NCBI RefSeq assembly: GCF_028710345.1
Contig: NZ_JAQTUH010000010.1
Span: forward strand, 1-57,044
DNA length: 57,044 nucleotides
DNA from: Sulfuricurvum sp.
Lineage (GTDB): Bacteria; Campylobacterota; Campylobacteria; Campylobacterales; Sulfurimonadaceae
Reading direction: 5' to 3'
How positions within the stretch are numbered: position 1 is the first letter of the stretch; every line of letters starts with the position of its first letter. The translations under genes were made by a program, and so were the position numbers. Under the pieces are notes generated by a model. The model saw only the letters and a list, made by a program, of their open reading frames with translations. It made no database searches and had not been told where the DNA came from. This document shows positions 9,185 to 17,716 of the stretch, piece by piece.

Positions 9185-10105
9185 ATGACCTTAGACGATT
9201 TACACCGCCATCTTAAAAACGCTTCTGTATCGCTTACCCACGAATATACTCGTCTTTTTCACGGACGGGGTAATACCTATGGTAACTACCGGTTTCTCAC
9301 CGTAGACAGTGTCGATAAAGTCCTTTTTGCAGTCTTATTTGAGATGGACGATGAAGAAGAAAAAATTATCACTATGTTGCGTGAATTTTACATGAATGAC
9401 GACAAATGGGAAGCTTTGGTAATTCAGCACCGCTATCTTCCCTCAGCACCATCAACGGTGATTATGGGAGAGTTACCTAGCCAAACCTTTGCTATTGAAA
9501 ACAATCTCAAATACCGTATAAACTTTCTAAATGCCCAAAACATCGGATTTTTTCCCGATATGAAGCTCGGACGCTCATTTGTTCGTGAGCATGCAAAGGG
9601 TAAAAACGTCCTAAATCTTTTCTCGTACACCTGCTCATTCTCCGTTGTCGCGATGGATGCAGGAGCTTATAGTGTTGTCAATGTCGATATGAACAAAAAC
9701 GTCCTCACGATAGGGAGAGAAAATCACCGTCTCAACGCCATTGAGACCAAAAACGTGGAGTTCATGCCCTACAACATCCTCAAGTCATGGAGCCGTATCC
9801 GCAAAAGCGGCCCCTATGATCTCATCATCATCGATCCCCCCAGCTTTCAAAAAGGCTCATTTGCCGCAACGTCTGATTATGAGAAGATTATAAAGCGGCT
9901 CCATGAGTTTGCGGCGCAGGAGTGTATCGTCCTCTCAGCGCTCAATGCCCCCGAACTAGAGTGCGAATTTATCAAAACCCTATTTCGTGAAAATGCACCT
10001 GAATTTGAGTATGTCGAGAGATTGGAGAATTTGGAGAGCTTCCCCGAAATAGAGGAAGAGCGAAGTTTGAAAAATTTGATTTTTAAACGAGTAGTGGATG
10101 GTTAA
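9185..10105 (+). CDS. SAM-dependent methyltransferase, RlmI-like (COG1092 type)
   Basis: Likely a nucleic-acid base methyltransferase. The SAM pocket is visible in GKNVLNLFSYTCSFSVVA followed by an acidic VVNVDMNKN loop, and the catalytic-site motif is DPPSFQKG with Asp217, as in the RlmI/RlmK family of 23S rRNA cytosine or guanine methyltransferases. At 306 residues it lacks the N-terminal PUA domain of E. coli RlmI (about 396), so the target may differ. Its last 24 codons are duplicated 6.9 kb downstream, which suggests that the present 3' end arrived with, or was rebuilt by, an inserted block. The stop overlaps the stop of the convergent AraC gene. Confidence 0.8.
   Translation: MTLDDLHRHLKNASVSLTHEYTRLFHGRGNTYGNYRFLTVDSVDKVLFAVLFEMDDEEEKIITMLREFYMNDDKWEALVIQHRYLPSAPSTVIMGELPSQTFAIENNLKYRINFLNAQNIGFFPDMKLGRSFVREHAKGKNVLNLFSYTCSFSVVAMDAGAYSVVNVDMNKNVLTIGRENHRLNAIETKNVEFMPYNILKSWSRIRKSGPYDLIIIDPPSFQKGSFAATSDYEKIIKRLHEFAAQECIVLSALNAPELECEFIKTLFRENAPEFEYVERLENLESFPEIEEERSLKNLIFKRVVDG
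10021..10091 (+). repeat. Left copy of 71-bp direct repeat (3' end of methyltransferase gene)
   Basis: This segment encodes the last residues of the methyltransferase (LENLESFPEIEEERSLKN...). It recurs in the same orientation at 16947-17017 with about four mismatches over 71 bases. The two copies bracket the six-gene block 10102-16921. The repeat start is sharp: upstream of it the two loci share no extended similarity. Confidence 0.85.
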
Positions 10106-11118
10106 TTACGCCGAATATTTTTCAATGTTTGAGAGGGGAGTTCATCAAAAAGTTCTTTATAATATTTTGCAAAAAGTGAAAAATTCGTATATCCACACTC
10201 AATAGCTACTTGAGTAACTGACACACCCTGCCCTGTCTCAAACATCCTTTTGGCATTTAAAAAATTTTGTTTTCTCAACCATTGCGTTGGAGTTATACCT
10301 AGTTGTTTTTGAAAAGCAATTTGTAGTGATCGGGTAGATAACCCTGTAAAACGTTCTAAATCCCCAATAGTTCTGAATTGGTAATCTGTTTCATGAACAT
10401 AATCCATTAACGTTTGTACAATAGAGCGTCCATCATAATGGGTAATTGTTTGAGGTGTGAGATTAGTAAAAAACTTATGCGGGATTAACATCATGACGAT
10501 TAATCGATAAAACTGTTCGTCAATCCTAAGATTTTCAAGCATATCGGGAGTTGTTCTGACAAAATCAATATAATGACATAATTTACGAACCATTAAATCA
10601 AATGAAATATCTCCGTAAGTGAGTGGTATTAATCGTGGTTCATATAACCGTAAATCGTTCATAGTAACATTTTGAAAACCTAACATCGACACGGCAGTTT
10701 GAAAAATTATTTGTGGATTGAGATCGACAGTCAATAAAGAACGGGTTGACGATGTACCGGAACGAGCGATATTCGGCATCAAAATCGCGTACCCGTTTTG
10801 TTGCCAGTGATATACTTTAGCATCTAACAATGTATCATTGTCACCCACAAAAGGTATCATTAAATTAATCTCTTTAAAATCAGTTGTATCAACAAATACG
10901 GGAGTTGCCACACTAGCAATCAACCGAAGCTGATTAAGTTTTAAAAAGAATGTTTTGCTCTCAAAATTTTTAGGATTTCCAAGAGCACTAAACTGTTGTA
11001 AAGATGGGACAACTTTGGCAATTTGATGAGAATAAATTTTTGAATCACTATGATAAACCGCTTCATTATTCCCAAAAATAAGCGATGGGAGTGTACTTTT
11101 TAACCCCATATTTCTCAC
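10102..11118 (-). CDS. AraC-family transcriptional regulator
   Basis: A 338-residue regulator with the usual two-helix-turn-helix DNA-binding domain at the C-terminus (about residues 235-335: FRTIGDLERFTGLSTRSLQ, then GITPTQWLRKQ and VTQVAIECGYTNFSLFAKYYKELF). The first 200 or so residues form an effector or dimerisation region of the kind found in AraC regulators that act on catabolic or stress genes; the ligand is unknown. It starts with GTG; an in-frame ATG three codons later is equally plausible. It is divergent from the lipoprotein/dehydrogenase run, with a 173-base gap between, so it probably controls that run. Confidence 0.85.
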   Translation of the reverse strand: MRNMGLKSTLPSLIFGNNEAVYHSDSKIYSHQIAKVVPSLQQFSALGNPKNFESKTFFLKLNQLRLIASVATPVFVDTTDFKEINLMIPFVGDNDTLLDAKVYHWQQNGYAILMPNIARSGTSSTRSLLTVDLNPQIIFQTAVSMLGFQNVTMNDLRLYEPRLIPLTYGDISFDLMVRKLCHYIDFVRTTPDMLENLRIDEQFYRLIVMMLIPHKFFTNLTPQTITHYDGRSIVQTLMDYVHETDYQFRTIGDLERFTGLSTRSLQIAFQKQLGITPTQWLRKQNFLNAKRMFETGQGVSVTQVAIECGYTNFSLFAKYYKELFDELPSQTLKNIRRN

Positions 11119-11291
11119 TTTAATTTTTATAATTGTTTTATTATATAGTATTTTTCTATAAATAATTACCTATTTCTCACTCCCTAACTAAAGAATAAAT
11201 ACGTTTTTTTTGCATTGCTATTTCGTATTGATGGTAGCGAAAACTTTAGAATATTGGGATAATTATAGAGTTAATTAAAGGCAATATATAG

Positions 11292-13661
11292 ATGATTAAT
11301 TCAAATGAAATAGATGTATTACGACGTGAATTATGTAAATTAAGTGTTATCGGAGTCGGTATGTTAGTGACCGGTTGCGGTGGCAGCGGTGATAGCGGAA
11401 ATGCAGGTAGTGGCAGTAGCGCATCGACGGCACTGACCAACGACCAAATACGGGACAAAGCACTCGATATTATGCGTCAAACCGATCTCAGTCCCATGCT
11501 TTATGAATCAGGCAACTGGTCTAACGGTGCATACAACGACTGGGTATTCTATCTGACGAAACAAATAACGGAAACACAATACGTCACAGCTCGTTCTACC
11601 TCGCCGTATGCGAGCTATTATCCTACGCTTGAGAGCTATAAATTTAATCAATTGCCAGAAATTCCAGTTGATTATACCTTGGTATATACATCAGGTGCCA
11701 GGGGATATATGGATAATCGCAGTGATTATAATGTTCTAAGCCATCGGTATTATTACAATAATAGTAATCCGCTTTATTTAACGACTTGGATAAACATCAT
11801 GCATGACATGATAATGCGTGAGCGAAGTGTCATCGGGCAACACTATCTCGACATCAGTACAGGCAATGGCGGAAACTTATTAAATATGAGTTTTTTTCTC
11901 GCTACGTTAATTTATACTTTGGCTCTCTTTGCAAAATCAACTGGACGTCCTACAACAGGAACTGGAAGCGGATGGGGAACGAACGATATAGCCGCAAAAT
12001 CCCAGACAACTACACTCTCTGATACGCAAAAAGCACTTTTTCCTACTGATAAAATTCTTGATATCATAAAAGCTTTGGTTACAAACTATTCTGCTCCATT
12101 TATTACCTATGGTGTACAAAACAGACCTCCGAACCAAAAGTTGACTTATATCGCATGGATGGCGATGCTTACACACTTTTTTCCGGATGTGACAGAGGTC
12201 AAAAACTTCTCAGGAGAAGTCGATTCCCTTATGCATGCATTTTTAGCACAAGACACGTATCGTGATGGAGGTGTCATCGAACAATCCTTTAATTACTCGG
12301 ACGATGTGATCAATTGGCTAACTCGATTACAACGATTAACAAGTCGCTCCTGGTCTTCAACGACTTCATCAGCCATACAAGATTATTGGCGACAAGCCGC
12401 AGCTATCCTTAACCCGTTTGGCAGTCGCCCAACAATGGATATTACCAGCTGGAGCACTACCGCATCGACCAATATACCTGCCACGACCTTTGGCCAAACA
12501 TCGATTGCATTTCCATATAGCGGTTTTTACGTCCAACGCTCCGATTGGAGTAGTAATGGCGCGTATATGTTTCTCTTCTCCCGCAGAGCCGCAGCGGGAC
12601 ACTATATGCCGGCATCGAACTCTATTCAAGTAGCCGCGTATGGACGGACACTCTTAAATGTTGCAGCATATCACTCTTACACTGGCTACACTAATTCAAA
12701 TGCTTATTTGGCAGAGTCCTCTACATGGAAATCAACCACGATCATTGTCGATGGACATTCTCAATCAAGAGGCGGTTCAACAGCTGGAATACAATCTGAC
12801 TCTAATGGAAATTTTCAAACGGTTAATCCTGTACCGTCCCGTTGGGGAACATCGGATGTGTTTGATTTTATGGAGAGTACCCATGATGCTGATTACACGT
12901 ATGACCCTTATACTAGCACCACAAATACTTCGACGGGTGTTGTTCATAAACGTATGATTGTCTTTATCCGTGAACTTAAAGCATGGGTGATTGCCGACTA
13001 TCTCATTCCTACAGCTGGAGGAACCCATAACTACACACAAATTTGGCGCTATCCTTCTCCCACTAATGGAGGATTTAACCTTTCACAGGTCGTCTTACCA
13101 ACTACAGACGCTGTGAAACGACTTTACACAAACGATACGACTAGCGGAGCCGTGAATCTCTCAATCTATCAAAGTGCTCCTCAGACTCTCAACCACACCA
13201 GCTATTTTGGTTCTACCGATCCAAACACTCGCTATGGATTTGACAACACCCCTAACCCCTCTATTTCGGGAGCACCTAGTTTTTCGTGTGATGTTCATAC
13301 GACTTGGACTGGTAATAGTACCCAAGCAATACTCAGCGTCCTTATTCCATTCCAAGGTTCAGACGGTGTTACGGCAAGTTCAAATACCTCTGCAGGTTTA
13401 AACGCAGGATTGACTTTAGTTATTAATGGAAAAACAGTCGATGTAAGTGCCATTCCCGCAACAACAGCTGCTCAATGTGCCCTTAATCTTACTTATACGA
13501 ACTCTGGCGGTACACAAAACGTCGTTATCGGTGATTTAGCCATAACCTCTGCAAGCTATATTCAATTCAATAACGGTTCAAAACAACCACTAGTTGTTCC
13601 TTCCGGATTTTCATGGAGTACCGATTCATCGGGTACTTTAACAGCAAATTACACAGCATAG
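11292..13661 (+). CDS. Putative heparinase II/III-like exported lipoprotein
   Basis: A 789-residue exported protein. The N-terminus holds Arg11-Arg12 in LRRELCKLS, a hydrophobic stretch, and lipobox VTGC with Cys29, so a Tat-dependent lipoprotein is possible. A Gly/Ser linker follows. An alpha-helical middle part (about 60-370) precedes a beta-rich part with GFYVQRSDW near residue 410, GHYMPASNSIQVAAYGRTLLN near 435 and MIVFIRELKAWVIADYLIP near 560. This layout resembles heparinase II/III-type polysaccharide lyases, in which a helical toroid precedes a beta-sandwich with a conserved Arg-Ser-x-Trp strand and a Gly-His motif. The match is by eye and the substrate is unknown. It opens the run facing the AraC regulator. 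Confidence 0.5.
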   Translation: MINSNEIDVLRRELCKLSVIGVGMLVTGCGGSGDSGNAGSGSSASTALTNDQIRDKALDIMRQTDLSPMLYESGNWSNGAYNDWVFYLTKQITETQYVTARSTSPYASYYPTLESYKFNQLPEIPVDYTLVYTSGARGYMDNRSDYNVLSHRYYYNNSNPLYLTTWINIMHDMIMRERSVIGQHYLDISTGNGGNLLNMSFFLATLIYTLALFAKSTGRPTTGTGSGWGTNDIAAKSQTTTLSDTQKALFPTDKILDIIKALVTNYSAPFITYGVQNRPPNQKLTYIAWMAMLTHFFPDVTEVKNFSGEVDSLMHAFLAQDTYRDGGVIEQSFNYSDDVINWLTRLQRLTSRSWSSTTSSAIQDYWRQAAAILNPFGSRPTMDITSWSTTASTNIPATTFGQTSIAFPYSGFYVQRSDWSSNGAYMFLFSRRAAAGHYMPASNSIQVAAYGRTLLNVAAYHSYTGYTNSNAYLAESSTWKSTTIIVDGHSQSRGGSTAGIQSDSNGNFQTVNPVPSRWGTSDVFDFMESTHDADYTYDPYTSTTNTSTGVVHKRMIVFIRELKAWVIADYLIPTAGGTHNYTQIWRYPSPTNGGFNLSQVVLPTTDAVKRLYTNDTTSGAVNLSIYQSAPQTLNHTSYFGSTDPNTRYGFDNTPNPSISGAPSFSCDVHTTWTGNSTQAILSVLIPFQGSDGVTASSNTSAGLNAGLTLVINGKTVDVSAIPATTAAQCALNLTYTNSGGTQNVVIGDLAITSASYIQFNNGSKQPLVVPSGFSWSTDSSGTLTANYTA

Positions 13662-13673
13662 GAGAAAACAATC

Positions 13674-14237
13674 ATGAATCCATTCATAAAAATAGTTTCA
13701 GGGGGAATTTTACTCTCCCTTTTGGTATCTACATCACAACTTTCAGCGAACGAGTTACCCAACCTAGATGGTATATGGAGCAGTGAAGGGATCGAAAATT
13801 ACGGTACAGTTTATGCGACACGAACCTTTGTATTTAAAGATAAATCATGGAGTGTTGCATTTGATGCATATGCTGATTCACAAAAAAAGCTTCCTTTATT
13901 CTCTCTTGATGTAGGTGGCTTTTATGTTGTCGGGAATCCTTCTTCGATTGTAAATGGTGCGAGTGAGGGAATTTTTCCGGCAAACCATCGCAACGTCATC
14001 GCTCAAAGTAATGCTGGTGTACAAATGTTCGCCTCCATGGGATGCAATTTAGAAATAGGTAAATCAACCCCCTTGGTAAATCAAGGATGCGGTTTTATTC
14101 CCGGATTGATGCAGTCTATGGGTGAATATGATCTTTTATCCTACAAAAATGGGAAGCTCTATTTTGGAGATCGCTCAGGTGATCTGACCAAATCACGACC
14201 AAATACACTAACGACATACCCTGTCGTTAAAAAATAA
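13674..14237 (+). CDS. Secreted protein of unknown function
   Basis: Not recognised. It has a clear signal peptide (MNPFIKIVSGGILLSLLVST, likely cleaved after SANE-adjacent Ala near residue 25) and a mature part of about 160 residues with alternating hydrophobic and polar residues typical of a beta-sheet protein. Two cysteines lie close together (GCNLEIG and QGCGFIPG) and could form a disulfide. The segment LDGIWSSEGIENYGTVYATRTFVF resembles the first strands of small lipocalin-like barrels, a weak similarity only. It starts 12 bases after the lyase-like gene with an AGGAG ribosome site, so both are probably made together and exported. Confidence 0.6.
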   Translation: MNPFIKIVSGGILLSLLVSTSQLSANELPNLDGIWSSEGIENYGTVYATRTFVFKDKSWSVAFDAYADSQKKLPLFSLDVGGFYVVGNPSSIVNGASEGIFPANHRNVIAQSNAGVQMFASMGCNLEIGKSTPLVNQGCGFIPGLMQSMGEYDLLSYKNGKLYFGDRSGDLTKSRPNTLTTYPVVKK

Positions 14238-14256
14238 ATCAAAAAAAGAGGTTTAC

Positions 14257-15120
14257 ATGTCGAAAATTGTTCTTATTACTGGTACAAGTTCAGGTTTTGG
14301 AAGCTATGCCGCTCCACTATTGGCATCCCATGGGTATAAAGTATATGCAACTATGCGTGATATTAGTGGACGAAATAGAGAGCATTGCCTCGCCATGGAA
14401 GCTCAGCATCCCAATATTAAAGTTCTGGAACTCGAATTAACCGACAGTGCTAGTATTGAAAATTCTGTCAAATATATAATGACTACTGAAGGACGAATTG
14501 ATGTATTGATAAACAATGCTGGACGTTTTTATATGGGCATCGGAGAAAGTTTTACAGAAGAAGATTTACTTCACATTTATAATGTAGATGTCTTAGGACC
14601 ATGGCGTCTTATCCGTGCGGTTCTTCCATACATGCGAAATCAAAATAGCGGTTATATTATCACTGTAACAAGTAGCCTTGCACGTTTTTCTTGCCCATTT
14701 ATGACCTGCTATGCATCTGCCAAACATGCACTTGAGGGGTTGTTGCAAGGGATGAAGTACGAATTAAAATCCTCTAATATCGATTTTACGTTTATCGAAC
14801 CGGGAATCTATCCGACTAATGTGTTCAATAATTTCGGCAGAGGTTCGGATACATCACGCAACGCGGCATACGGTCCGATGGCACATATCGCCGACGGTAT
14901 CAAAGCCCAATTGGACGATCTTTTTGCAAGCCCTCACGCAAACGATCCGATGCTGGTTGCACGGGCAATGCTCAAGCTGATCGAATCCGACTCTGTGAAC
15001 CGCCCTATTCGATTGCCGGTAGACCCAAATGCGTCTGAATTTACCAATCGTCTTAATGAAGCTCATGATGAAGAATACCTTAAATTTTTAACAGCCTCAG
15101 GAATGGGGGAATTGCTATAA
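14257..15120 (+). CDS. Short-chain dehydrogenase/reductase (SDR)
   Basis: A classical SDR of 287 residues: NAD(P)-binding TGTSSGFG motif near residue 8, NNAG near residue 87, catalytic Ser around 139, and the YxxxK pair Tyr152/Lys156. These enzymes interconvert alcohols and ketones or aldehydes with NAD(P)(H). The substrate cannot be read. The C-terminal extension after residue 210 is longer than in minimal SDRs and resembles the retinol/steroid dehydrogenase-like group. It lies 19 bases after the secreted protein gene and abuts the chemoreceptor gene with no gap, so it belongs to the same transcription unit. Confidence 0.85.
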   Translation: MSKIVLITGTSSGFGSYAAPLLASHGYKVYATMRDISGRNREHCLAMEAQHPNIKVLELELTDSASIENSVKYIMTTEGRIDVLINNAGRFYMGIGESFTEEDLLHIYNVDVLGPWRLIRAVLPYMRNQNSGYIITVTSSLARFSCPFMTCYASAKHALEGLLQGMKYELKSSNIDFTFIEPGIYPTNVFNNFGRGSDTSRNAAYGPMAHIADGIKAQLDDLFASPHANDPMLVARAMLKLIESDSVNRPIRLPVDPNASEFTNRLNEAHDEEYLKFLTASGMGELL

Positions 15121-16248
15121 ATGTTTTTTGGAAATAAGCACGAGATTGAAGATGCGGTTAAACCTCTCCATTCAAAAATAGCAGAGTTAGAACAAGAAAT
15201 AAGCAATCTTAAGGGAGAGAATACTCAACTCCAAAAAGAAAACAGTCAATATAAAAATGATGCGGTTATGTTCGATCTGATACATCAGTTAACAGAGAAT
15301 TTAACGAGTGCTTGCCAAACAGACTTGTCACTTTTACAAAAAGATCTTGCAGATAATGTTGGTAATTTAGAAGAGATTGAAATTTTAAATAAAACCAACC
15401 GTACAAATGCGATTGAAATCAATGAAGAGATTAGTGAAATCCTCGCAATACAGCAACAATTAGTGAACAACATCACAGACAATTACGGCTCAGTCGGTCA
15501 ATTGAATGATGGAGTAGGATCAATCGGACAAGTCATTGATTTGATTAAAGATATTTCCGATCAAACAAACCTATTAGCACTTAATGCCGCTATCGAAGCA
15601 GCCCGTGCTGGTGAACATGGTCGTGGATTCGCTGTTGTTGCCGATGAAGTACGAAAACTGGCTGAACGTACTCAAAAAGCTACTCAAGAGGTAGCAATGA
15701 GCGTTCAAAGCCTCAAGCAAAATGCTATGGAAATACATGAACGTTCAAGCACAATGGAATCTATCTCATCAACCTCCAGTAATAAATTAGAAGAGTTCCG
15801 AACAACACTTTTAAATCTAGGAAATCGAACGCAAGAGATTGAAAATGATTCAACTAACGTACTTTATTCTGTTTTTATGGTTTTAGTAAAACTCGATCAC
15901 TTGCTTTTCAAATCCAAAGGATATAAAACAGTTTTGAGTTCGAAAATTGAAGATGAATTTGCTGATCATCACCATTGTCGTTTAGGTAGATGGGCAGACG
16001 GCGGTAAAGGTGCAGAAATTTTTGGAAATACACCAAGCTTTAGACAACTCGAAACTCCTCATAAAGAAGTACATGACAATATATTATTAGCTGTTAAATG
16101 TGTAAGTGAAGGTAAGTGTGCTCAAGAATCAAAAAATGTGATAACTTACTTTAGAAATGCAGAAAATGCAAGTCGTAAAGTTATTGAAACATTAAATGCA
16201 ATGTTAACTGAAGAACGTCAAAAAAGAGCAGTTAAAAAGAATACCTGA
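15121..16248 (+). CDS. Soluble methyl-accepting chemotaxis protein with CZB zinc-binding domain
   Basis: A cytoplasmic chemoreceptor of 375 residues with no membrane segments and no HAMP domain. An N-terminal coiled coil (about residues 10-45) leads to the MCP signalling hairpin with the conserved tip ([19 protein letters not shown]). The C-terminal chemoreceptor zinc-binding domain has all its ligands: His260, Cys286 in HCRLGRW, His314 and His318 in HKEVH. The layout matches Helicobacter pylori TlpD, a soluble receptor that responds to oxidants. The ATG follows the dehydrogenase stop directly, with GGGGGA upstream as ribosome site. Finding a chemoreceptor inside a metabolic operon suggests taxis linked to the compound or stress handled by its neighbours. 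Confidence 0.88.
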
Positions 16249-16288
16249 TAATATTATTGCAGTAGTTAAACATAAATAGGAGTCTGAT

Positions 16289-16921
16289 ATGAATATTACC
16301 ATTATAGGTGCTTCCGCTGGAGTAGGATTGTGTTGTGTAAAAAGAGCACTAGAGAGAGGTCATAAGATATCTACACTGTCTCGCTCAGACATTCCATTAC
16401 CATCTAACTCTAATCTGACGATGATAAAAGGTAGTGCACTCAATAAAGATGACCTTACACACGTTATCAAAGATGCAGATGCCGTCATTGTAGCTCTTGG
16501 AACAGGTAAAAGTATGAAAGCAACAACCATGTACAGCGATTTCGCCCATTTGCTTGTAGAGATTCAAAATGAAATAAATACTAAAATACCGTTTATTGTC
16601 TTAACAGGGTTTGGTGCAGGAGATAGCTGGAACTATAATAGCTTTTTTATGAAACTATTTTTCAATCTTTTCCTCAAGGATATTTATAATGATAAAACGA
16701 TCATGGAAAAAATCATCTCAACATCATCACTCCAATGGGAATGTATCCGTCCCGGATTATTGCTCGATAGACCATTAAGCGAAAATTACAGAATAGAGAG
16801 CGAATTATACAAAAAGATGGATATAGGGGGAATTTCTCGTAATGATGTTGCAGATTTTATGATCAAACAAGTAGAAAATCCTACCTATCTTTTTCAGTAT
16901 CCCGCATTGTCGAATCGATAA
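16289..16921 (+). CDS. NAD(P)-binding Rossmann-fold protein (NmrA/SDR_a5 type)
   Basis: A 210-residue protein with an N-terminal dinucleotide-binding motif (ITIIGASAGVG) and a GTGKSM loop after VIVAL, as in small atypical SDRs that bind NAD(P)H. It lacks the Tyr-x3-Lys catalytic pair of classical SDRs, so it could be a reductase such as the biliverdin/flavin reductase type or a redox-sensing protein. AGGAGTCTGAT is a good ribosome site. It is the last gene of the run that starts with the heparinase-like protein, and the duplicated methyltransferase tail starts 24 bases after its stop. Confidence 0.75.
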   Translation: MNITIIGASAGVGLCCVKRALERGHKISTLSRSDIPLPSNSNLTMIKGSALNKDDLTHVIKDADAVIVALGTGKSMKATTMYSDFAHLLVEIQNEINTKIPFIVLTGFGAGDSWNYNSFFMKLFFNLFLKDIYNDKTIMEKIISTSSLQWECIRPGLLLDRPLSENYRIESELYKKMDIGGISRNDVADFMIKQVENPTYLFQYPALSNR

Positions 16922-16944
16922 TATCGTACACAATTCTATACTAC

Positions 16945-17025
16945 AAATTGGAAAATTTGGAGAGCTTCCCCGAAATCGAGGAAGAGCGAAGTTTGAAAAA
17001 TTTGGTTTTTAGACGAGGTTCTTAA
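16945..17025 (+). pseudogene. Remnant: 3' end of an RlmI-like methyltransferase gene
   Basis: An in-frame fragment of 26 codons plus TAA stop that translates to KLENLESFPEIEEERS and then LKNLVFRRGS. It matches the C-terminus of the methyltransferase encoded at 9185-10105, differing at four bases in the shared 71 and then ending Gly-Ser instead of Val-Val-Asp-Gly. It has no start codon or upstream coding part. The simplest reading is that this is the original gene tail, displaced when the block between the two copies entered. Its stop overlaps the end of the convergent DUF2798 gene, as expected for an old gene junction. Confidence 0.8.
16947..17017 (+). repeat. Right copy of 71-bp direct repeat
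   Basis: Same-orientation copy of 10021-10091, offset 6926 bases, about 94 percent identical by eye. The copies diverge right after position 17017, where the remnant continues GTTCTTAA and the intact gene continues TAGTGGATGG. Confidence 0.85.
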
Positions 17026-17249
17026 GGTCTCGCCGCAATCTTCATCGCCAATTTTCTGGCAAACGGAAATACGAGCAAAATCGTAGGAAAGGCGATAGCA
17101 TACGCCACAAACCACGCATGTAGCCATATCCCGACAAATCCCTTGACTAACCCTAGATTAATAAGGGTAATCGCCCCCGACATAATAAAGCTCATAAAAC
17201 CCGAAAGCAAAGCCGCTTGCACCTGATGTAAGTATTTAACTGAAACCAT
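17022..17249 (-). CDS. DUF2798 small membrane protein
   Basis: A 75-residue inner-membrane protein with two hydrophobic helices (about residues 12-32 and 42-62) and the PxARKLAM-like basic tail typical of the DUF2798 family. The molecular function of the family is unknown. The ATG has an AAAAGGAAAAAT ribosome site and lies 12 bases after the HxlR regulator gene, so they are co-transcribed. Its stop overlaps the methyltransferase remnant on the other strand. Confidence 0.75.
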   Translation of the reverse strand: MVSVKYLHQVQAALLSGFMSFIMSGAITLINLGLVKGFVGIWLHAWFVAYAIAFPTILLVFPFARKLAMKIAARP

Positions 17250-17261
17250 ATTTTTCCTTTT

Positions 17262-17612
17262 CTAATGACTGCTGCACGCAATCGTAATATTGTTATCCCG
17301 TGCATACTCTGCACCCCAATCTATCATCTGATTGAGGATAGGTCGCAAAGCTTCACCATGCGAGGTAAGACTGTACTCTACTTTCGGCGGTACTTGCTCA
17401 TAGATAACACGACTTACAAGTCCGTTTTCTTCCATCTCCCGTAGCTGTTGCGTCAGCATTTTTTGAGTGATACGGGGCATAAGACGGAGCATTTCACCGT
17501 TACGGAGCACTTTTTTATCGAGTAGATGCCATAGTATCAACCCTTTCCACTTCCCGCCGATAACCTCCATAGTGAGTTCAAACGGGCAATTAAATCGTGA
17601 TTCTTCAATCAT
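17262..17612 (-). CDS. HxlR-family transcriptional regulator
   Basis: A 116-residue winged-helix regulator with the family-typical opening (CPFELTMEVIGGKWKGLILWHLL) and the ITQKMLTQQLREMEENGLV recognition region. Cys9 sits at the position that senses quinones or disulfide stress in HxlR proteins such as YodB and HypR. The regulator is divergent from a nitroreductase, a common pairing in which the regulator controls the reductase in response to electrophiles. Two short palindromes in the shared promoter region are candidate operators. DUF2798 follows in the same unit. Confidence 0.88.
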   Translation of the reverse strand: MIEESRFNCPFELTMEVIGGKWKGLILWHLLDKKVLRNGEMLRLMPRITQKMLTQQLREMEENGLVSRVIYEQVPPKVEYSLTSHGEALRPILNQMIDWGAEYARDNNITIACSSH

Positions 17613-17637
17613 TTATAGTTACCTTTTAGTATGTATA

Positions 17638-17684
17638 GTACTTTTTAGTACGTTCTTGACAGTAAATACTGTATACTATAAAAT
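17638..17684 (+). promoter_or_regulatory. Nitroreductase promoter with two short palindromes
   Basis: A promoter reads TTGACA at 17656-17661, a 17-base spacer and TAAAAT at 17679-17684. Two perfect inverted repeats overlap it: GTACT-TTTT-AGTAC at 17638-17651 and ACAGTA-AA-TACTGT at 17659-17672. The TACT/AGTA half-sites resemble those bound by HxlR-family YodB. Control by the divergent HxlR protein is an inference from sequence and position. Confidence 0.6.
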
Positions 17685-17716
17685 CTCACCTGATAAAACC
17701 CTAAAGGAGCCTTTAA

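What the first reader, a model, noticed from the sequence alone, without database searches (positions are those of the whole stretch)
10021..17025. Six-gene block bracketed by a duplicated methyltransferase gene tail
The last 71 bases of the RlmI-like methyltransferase gene (10021-10091) recur in direct orientation at 16947-17017 with about four mismatches, and the second copy keeps its reading frame and stop. Between them lie an AraC regulator, a heparinase-like lipoprotein, a secreted protein, an SDR, a CZB chemoreceptor and an NAD(P)-binding protein. Loss of the 6926 bases by recombination would restore a clean methyltransferase gene. This looks like insertion at a gene's 3' end that rebuilt the end of the gene, as integrating elements do, but no integrase is visible, so homologous recombination with foreign DNA is also possible.
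Basis: partly seen in the sequence, partly recalled or inferred. Interest (0 to 1): 0.72.

Follow-up and report, generated by a model that had tools for sequence, protein, structure and literature searches.

The report
Six-gene insert beside leftover gene tail
In a bacterium of the Sulfuricurvum group, a six-gene block lies between a complete methyltransferase gene and a second 71-base copy of that gene's tail; the block likely arrived on foreign DNA that recombined at the gene's end and left the older tail behind, an ordinary route of gene gain that is here unusually readable.

Summary
Bases 10021-10091 recur at 16947-17017 (67 of 71 identical); the genome search found no third copy. Both methyltransferase (MT) ends share a TTAA stop overlap with a convergent neighbour: AraC at copy 1, DUF2798 at copy 2. 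A relative (L033, Sulfuricurvum sp. PD_MW2) has MT directly against DUF2798, and copy 2 aligns with it without gaps across that junction. The second tail's 25 residues are the exact C-terminus of a full-length MT elsewhere (P0030). All four mismatches are bases common among genus alleles, so the copies look like two functional alleles rather than one decayed duplicate.

The block carries no integrase, and its repeat does not recur convincingly in relatives. AraC and the heparinase-like gene occur in 2 of 41 genus genomes, the window's included; the other, G009, holds a compact AraC-Hep-NADP cassette elsewhere in the same neighbourhood. MT's 3' neighbour varies widely across 25 loci, but so does its 5' neighbour. 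I favour integrase-free insertion: foreign DNA anchored by homology in MT, with a non-homologous right-hand join that left the recipient's tail. Circle integration, a lost integrase and in-lineage duplication remain possible. The donor is unseen. A clean example of a known kind.

The parts
9185..10105 (+). Complete SAM-dependent methyltransferase gene (MT, PF10672), ending VVDG-stop
   Evidence: 306 aa; stop TAA 10103-10105 shares TTAA with the AraC stop
10021..10091 (+). Repeat copy 1, inside the 3' end of MT
   Evidence: 67 of 71 identical to copy 2
10102..11118 (-). AraC-family regulator, convergent with MT and divergent from the operon
   Evidence: PF12833; in 2 of 41 genus genomes at E <= 1e-40, own included
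11292..13661 (+). Protein with predicted heparinase II/III-like polysaccharide-lyase fold (Hep)
13674..14237 (+).
   Evidence: PF14921, 35 bits against cut-off 27; secretion not tested
14257..15120 (+). Short-chain dehydrogenase/reductase (SDR)
   Evidence: PF00106; best match by E-value elsewhere in the genus 34%
15121..16248 (+). CZB-domain chemoreceptor
   Evidence: PF00015 and PF13682; relatives to 79% elsewhere in the genus
16289..16921 (+). NAD(P)H-binding protein (NADP)
   Evidence: PF13460; 81% relative in L045
16922..16946 (.). 25-base spacer before the second tail; adjoins or contains the right-hand junction; origin unknown
   Evidence: No other match with up to 3 mismatches in 41 genus genomes
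16947..17017 (+). Repeat copy 2: orphan 3' fragment of an MT allele; its frame runs on to a stop at 17023-17025
   Evidence: its 25-residue reading equals the C-terminus of P0030
17022..17249 (-). DUF2798 gene; its stop overlaps the orphan tail's stop (TTAA 17022-17025)
   Evidence: PF11391; complete MT meets DUF2798 the same way in L033, aligned without gaps over 108 bases at 80%
17262..17612 (-). HxlR-family regulator, downstream flank
   Evidence: PF01638
17717..18322 (+). Nitroreductase (NTR), downstream flank
   Evidence: PF00881

Best explanation
The block lies between a complete methyltransferase gene and a second 71-base fragment of that gene's 3' end, and it most likely arrived on foreign DNA that recombined by homology in the methyltransferase gene and was probably joined without homology on its right side, leaving the recipient's old gene tail beside DUF2798. 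Shown: the two tails, the empty arrangement in a relative, a full-length methyltransferase elsewhere ending exactly like the orphan tail, and no integrase family in the block. Inferred: a donor in which the methyltransferase lay convergent with AraC supplied the present gene end (VVDG) and the six genes, and the donor's right end was sealed inside the recipient's methyltransferase at the start of the repeat. The second tail would then be a fossil of the earlier MT|DUF2798 junction. The block would carry its own regulator and operon: AraC divergent from Hep-Sec-SDR-CZB-NADP, Hep having a predicted polysaccharide-lyase fold. It would not move by itself. Recombination between the two tails could delete it and give an intact gene ending RRGS.
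For: Repeat and uniqueness. Empty MT|DUF2798 junction sharing TTAA in L033; copy 2 plus the DUF2798 end aligns to it without gaps over 108 bases at 80%. The orphan tail LENLESFPEIEEERSLKNLVFRRGS is the exact C-terminus of full-length P0030, 1 of the 120 MT proteins listed of 148 found; P0024 ends in a near variant. Each of the four mismatch positions carries both states in at least 8 of 27 distinct genus tails. Random changes reach so high a summed allele frequency with P 0.0005 to 0.005, depending on direction and transition bias; the weaker statistic, all four merely seen in relatives, gives 0.02-0.06. The copies are closer to each other (3 differences in the first 65 bases) than to any relative (at least 7). 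AraC and Hep are in 2 of 41 genus genomes, own included; Hep in 1 of 397 phylum-sample genomes, the window's own. No mobility family in the block. MT's 3' neighbour differs widely across 25 loci, and in 7 of 25, window included, DUF2798 follows with nothing or differing genes between. ComEC-type and DprA families are in the genome (also in most control genomes). Precedents: PMC5361080, PMC5635113, PMC2884548 (passages).
Against: No genome with MT convergent to AraC and no second tail was found: the donor is unseen. Only one relative shows the empty junction; its MT DNA is 78% identical, and the window's flank genes are closer to relatives whose gap is filled (HxlR 91% and 87%, NTR 88% and 91% in L036 and L038) than to L033 (82%, 79%), so L033 may have lost genes independently. 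The right-hand join cannot be checked for microhomology because the spacer matches nothing. A mosaic boundary inside MT could not be shown. The tail is not the best-conserved stretch of MT: 290 of 837 windows are more conserved. MT's 5' side varies as much (14 neighbours in 23), and some other conserved genes have equally variable neighbours while others have fixed ones, so a hotspot at this exact place is not proven. One-sided illegitimate joining is described as rare (PMC5361080, passages). The P value rests on four differences.
Confidence: 0.5

Rival explanations
1. A circular DNA carrying the 71-base MT tail next to the block integrated by one homologous crossover inside the tail, giving two hybrid tails.
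For: Direct repeats at both ends with the complete gene on the left are what a single crossover gives. No integrase is needed.
Against: 71 bases at about 94% identity is short for efficient recombination (recalled). Hep has no match in 72,556 plasmid records. The block's only PHROGs matches are in AraC, SDR and the chemoreceptor. A circle bearing exactly this tail would itself need explaining.
Confidence: 0.15
2. One MT tail was duplicated in this lineage, for example by staggered-break repair or template switching when the block was inserted, and the copies then diverged.
For: The copies are each other's closest relatives. The block side could have supplied the VVDG-stop that closes MT.
Against: All four differences are common functional alleles (P 0.0005-0.005), and a full-length MT elsewhere ends exactly like copy 2. 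A dead copy would be expected to gain unusual changes.
Confidence: 0.17
3. The block is a genomic island that used the MT 3' end as attachment site and has lost its integrase or uses one encoded elsewhere.
For: Rebuilding a gene's 3' end with a direct repeat is a usual sign of such islands (recalled). The genome has nine PF00589 matches, eight over the cut-off, on other contigs.
Against: No integrase, phage-structural or conjugation family in the block; no PF00589 match on contig C10. 23 of 24 relatives with other genes at the spot show no MT repeat in the DNA available, and the other is at a contig end. In G009 the AraC-Hep-NADP part sits after NTR, not at MT. The spot's genes in relatives were not scanned for integrases.
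Confidence: 0.12
4. The second tail is an assembly artefact.
For: The genome is a draft of 46 contigs.
Against: The copies differ at four bases, and copy 2 continues into DUF2798 as MT does in L033.
Confidence: 0.03

Closest known systems
[quoted passage not shown] passages seen)
   Same: Different gene sets between shared flanks, no integrase family in the block, competence-type families present in the genome
   Different: That model uses two homologous crossovers and needs no duplicated tail; excess recombination in MT was not shown here
Homology-facilitated illegitimate recombination leaving orphan 3' parts (Vibrio cholerae T6SS immunity arrays, PMC5361080; abstract and passages seen)
   Same: A new module is inserted after a conserved upstream part and the old 3' part is pushed downstream and kept
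   Different: There the retained parts are mainly immunity genes; here a 71-base piece of a methyltransferase gene with no evident benefit
Integrative elements that rebuild a gene's 3' end (recalled)
   Same: Direct repeat, complete gene on one side, fragment on the other
   Different: No integrase family in the block, and no convincing recurrence of the repeat at this site in relatives

Membership tests
Integrase-borne genomic island at a gene 3' end | Integrase or other recombinase in the element | tested here: not met
   Pfam, NCBIfam and PHROGs scans of the six proteins: none; all nine PF00589 matches in the genome are off contig C10
Integrase-borne genomic island at a gene 3' end | Direct repeat of the gene end at both borders | tested here: met
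Integrase-borne genomic island at a gene 3' end | Same site used with the same repeat in other genomes | tested here: inconclusive
   23 of 24 relatives none in the DNA available; L049 has a 130-base repeat of internal MT sequence cut by its contig end
Integrase-borne genomic island at a gene 3' end | Excised circle | not testable with these tools
   needs reads or PCR
Integrase-free hotspot with recombination at flanking genes | Variable gene content between shared flanks | tested here: met
   In 7 of 25 loci (L033, L036, L038, L145, L050, L147, window) DUF2798 lies 3' of MT, with nothing or differing genes between
Integrase-free hotspot with recombination at flanking genes | More turnover here than at other gene borders | tested here: inconclusive
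   Pair sharing of neighbours 0.08 on both sides of MT; other families 0.05 to 1.00
Integrase-free hotspot with recombination at flanking genes | Flanking gene recombines more than other core genes | tested here: inconclusive
   Nearest relative changes along MT but no boundary is clear
Homology-facilitated illegitimate recombination | Recipient 3' fragment kept downstream of the insert | tested here: met
   Copy 2 joined to DUF2798 as MT is in L033; exact C-terminus of P0030. That it is the recipient's is inferred
Homology-facilitated illegitimate recombination | Short or no homology at the other junction | not testable with these tools
   Donor sequence beyond the 25-base spacer unknown
Heparinase II/III-like polysaccharide lyase (Hep) | Fold of the family | tested here: met
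Heparinase II/III-like polysaccharide lyase (Hep) | Match to the family's sequence profile | tested here: inconclusive
   Window protein has no Pfam hit at E <= 0.001; 13 of 19 listed homologues carry PF07940
RlmI 23S rRNA methyltransferase (MT) | Score over the NCBIfam RlmI cut-off | tested here: not met
   73 bits against 712

The most novel reading that the evidence does not exclude
The end of this methyltransferase gene works in Sulfuricurvum as an integrase-free docking point: incoming operons are repeatedly exchanged flush with its stop codon by recombination in the gene, and leftover tails such as this one record earlier occupants.
Probability: 0.15. Interest if true: 0.6.

Novelty: new member of a known kind. 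Interest (0 to 1): 0.33.

Why it matters
Gene gain without integrases is usually inferred from statistics over many genomes. Here one locus keeps what looks like the earlier gene tail, a relative shows the earlier arrangement, and a full-length gene elsewhere carries the same ending, so the place and likely direction of the insertion can be read from sequence. It also warns that a duplicated gene end beside a gene block is not proof of an integrase-driven island.

Tried and rejected
Mobile element: no mobility, defence or phage-structural family in the block; Hep has no match in 72,556 plasmid records and no confirmed relative in viral contigs.

Foreign base composition: block G+C 0.387 against flanks 0.419 and 0.414, inside the window's own range 0.375-0.460 for that length: uninformative.

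The tail as a specially conserved anchor: rejected, 290 of 837 windows of MT are more conserved.

Mosaic MT: no clear boundary.

Origin of the 25-base spacer: no other match in 41 genomes.

Linking the 96% Hep (P0001, 7,703-base contig) to an SDR: none of the 120 listed of 879 SDR homologues shows 7,703 as its longest contig. Undecided; the contig cannot be read here.

Neighbour count: one search gives 15 different 3' neighbours in 25 loci. Reading the sequences, two of them (L036, L055) are pieces of the old-yellow-enzyme-like gene and L049's is the f31 gene cut short, so I count 12. That 22 of 25 lie within -22 to +28 bases of the MT stop has no control.

Terminator scan: none at either tail. 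Profile search of solved structures with Hep: 0 matches; the fold search found relatives.

Papers: 'Sulfuricurvum' with 'genomic island' lists 12 (listing only). Searches gave the precedents cited. I make no claim that this locus is absent from print.

Full report
What was checked. The direct repeat is real: 10021-10091 and 16947-17017, 67 of 71 identical, start-to-start 6926, with no third match in the 3.01-Mb, 46-contig genome. Copy 1 lies inside the 3' end of a complete methyltransferase gene (MT, 9185-10105). Copy 2 keeps the same frame but starts in the middle of the gene, right after a 25-base spacer. The two ends differ after the repeat: VVDG-stop in copy 1, GS-stop in copy 2. Each stop shares a TTAA with a gene on the other strand, AraC (10102-11118) and DUF2798 (17022-17249).

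Relatives. In one search, 18 of 24 other genus genomes have a near full-length MT, at 73-83% protein identity; one search adds named Sulfuricurvum loci (70-83%). I laid out 32 of the loci held; after dropping five second copies and two without MT, 25 remain, the window included. Immediately 3' of MT one search counts 15 different neighbours. By reading sequences I merge these to 12, because L036 and L055 hold pieces of the old-yellow-enzyme-like gene and L049 a cut f31 gene. The old-yellow-enzyme-like gene (named from recall of its sequence) is the commonest, 6 loci, or 8 with the pieces. In 22 of 25 the next gene begins within -22 to +28 bases of the MT stop (no control). In L033 (Sulfuricurvum sp. 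PD_MW2, same contig coordinates as G014) complete MT meets DUF2798 directly, sharing TTAA, followed by HxlR and, after one more gene, NTR. The window's copy 2 and DUF2798 end align to this junction without gaps over 108 bases at 80%. This is the window's arrangement without the block, but L033's MT is only 78% identical in DNA, and the window's HxlR and NTR are closer to L036 and L038, where the gap is filled.

Second tails elsewhere. A DNA search with 16921-17056 in 41 genus genomes matched in 17; apart from the window's genome none had a second MT-tail match, and the extra matches in G011 and G056 cover only the DUF2798 end. A scan for MT's last 300 bases in the 3' DNA available (0.5-10 kb) found none in 23 of 24 relatives. 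The exception, L049, has 130 bases of internal MT sequence at its contig end and cannot be judged.

Where the block's genes come from. Hep and AraC occur in 2 of 41 genus genomes, own included; Hep in 1 of 397 of a phylum sample, which was the window's own genome. In G009 (L045) AraC-Hep-NADP stand together (73, 83 and 81%) after NTR, without Sec, SDR and CZB. The cassette therefore sits at different points of the same neighbourhood and has a shorter form. A 96% identical Hep, P0001, exists on an unread 7,703-base contig. SDR's best genus match by E-value is 34%; CZB belongs to a family spread through the genus.

Two alleles or one duplicate. Among 27 distinct genus tails both states are common (at least 8 of 27) at all four mismatch positions. 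Four random changes reach so high a summed frequency with P 0.0005-0.005; the chance that all four are merely seen in relatives is 0.02-0.06. The reading of copy 2, LENLESFPEIEEERSLKNLVFRRGS, is the exact C-terminus of P0030, a 304-residue MT, 1 of the 120 listed of 148 proteins. The present MT's own tail core is also found in P0046. So copy 2 looks like the end of a once complete gene. The two copies are closer to each other than to any other tail compared, which points to a closely related donor (inference).

Mechanism. The simplest reading is that the recipient had MT ending RRGS against DUF2798. Foreign DNA with MT against AraC paired in MT; its other end was joined inside the recipient's MT at the start of the repeat. 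The old tail stayed. Shown: both tails, the empty arrangement in a relative, the full-length twin of the tail, no integrase family in the block. Inferred: donor, crossover in MT, right-hand join. The genome has ComEC-type and DprA families, which also occur in 10 and 11 of the 14 control genomes, so this is weak support. Close precedents are orphan 3' parts in Vibrio cholerae (PMC5361080, passages), hotspots without mobility genes (PMC5635113, passages) and the discussion of illegitimate recombination in small variable segments (PMC2884548, passages).

Against it. The donor is unseen, the spacer matches nothing, no mosaic boundary shows in MT, the tail is not specially conserved, L033 is not the nearest relative over the flank genes, and MT's 5' side is as variable as its 3' side while some other genes have equally variable neighbours. 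Composition is uninformative. A circle, a lost integrase and an in-lineage duplication therefore keep real probability.

Verdict. A true, well-bounded insertion with a readable likely fossil; a new member of a known kind.

Noticed in passing
L036:945-1274: In another genome the slot 3' of MT holds a small fused gene: its first 68 residues match a neighbouring gene family (75%) and its last 49 match the C-terminus of the old-yellow-enzyme-like gene (69%); another kept 3' end after rearrangement.
   Followed up: partly
L049:7580-7709: A 130-base, 99% copy of internal MT sequence begins 379 bases after MT's end, inside the next gene, and runs to the contig end; assembly effect or tandem duplication.
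   Followed up: partly
L038 and L039: One genome (G011) shows the MT-DUF2798-HxlR-NTR region twice, on two contigs, with the same layout and scores.
   Followed up: no
17613-17716: The window lacks the NAD(P)H-oxidoreductase-like gene (f5; named from recall) that lies between HxlR and NTR in several relatives.
   Followed up: no
G000:C9:2180-3301: Another CZB chemoreceptor-like stretch of the same genome, 77% like the block's, is listed with one TAA inside.
   Followed up: no
9335-9484: MT residues 51-100 are far less like relatives (at best 74% among the 119 other listed proteins) than the rest of the protein.
   Followed up: no
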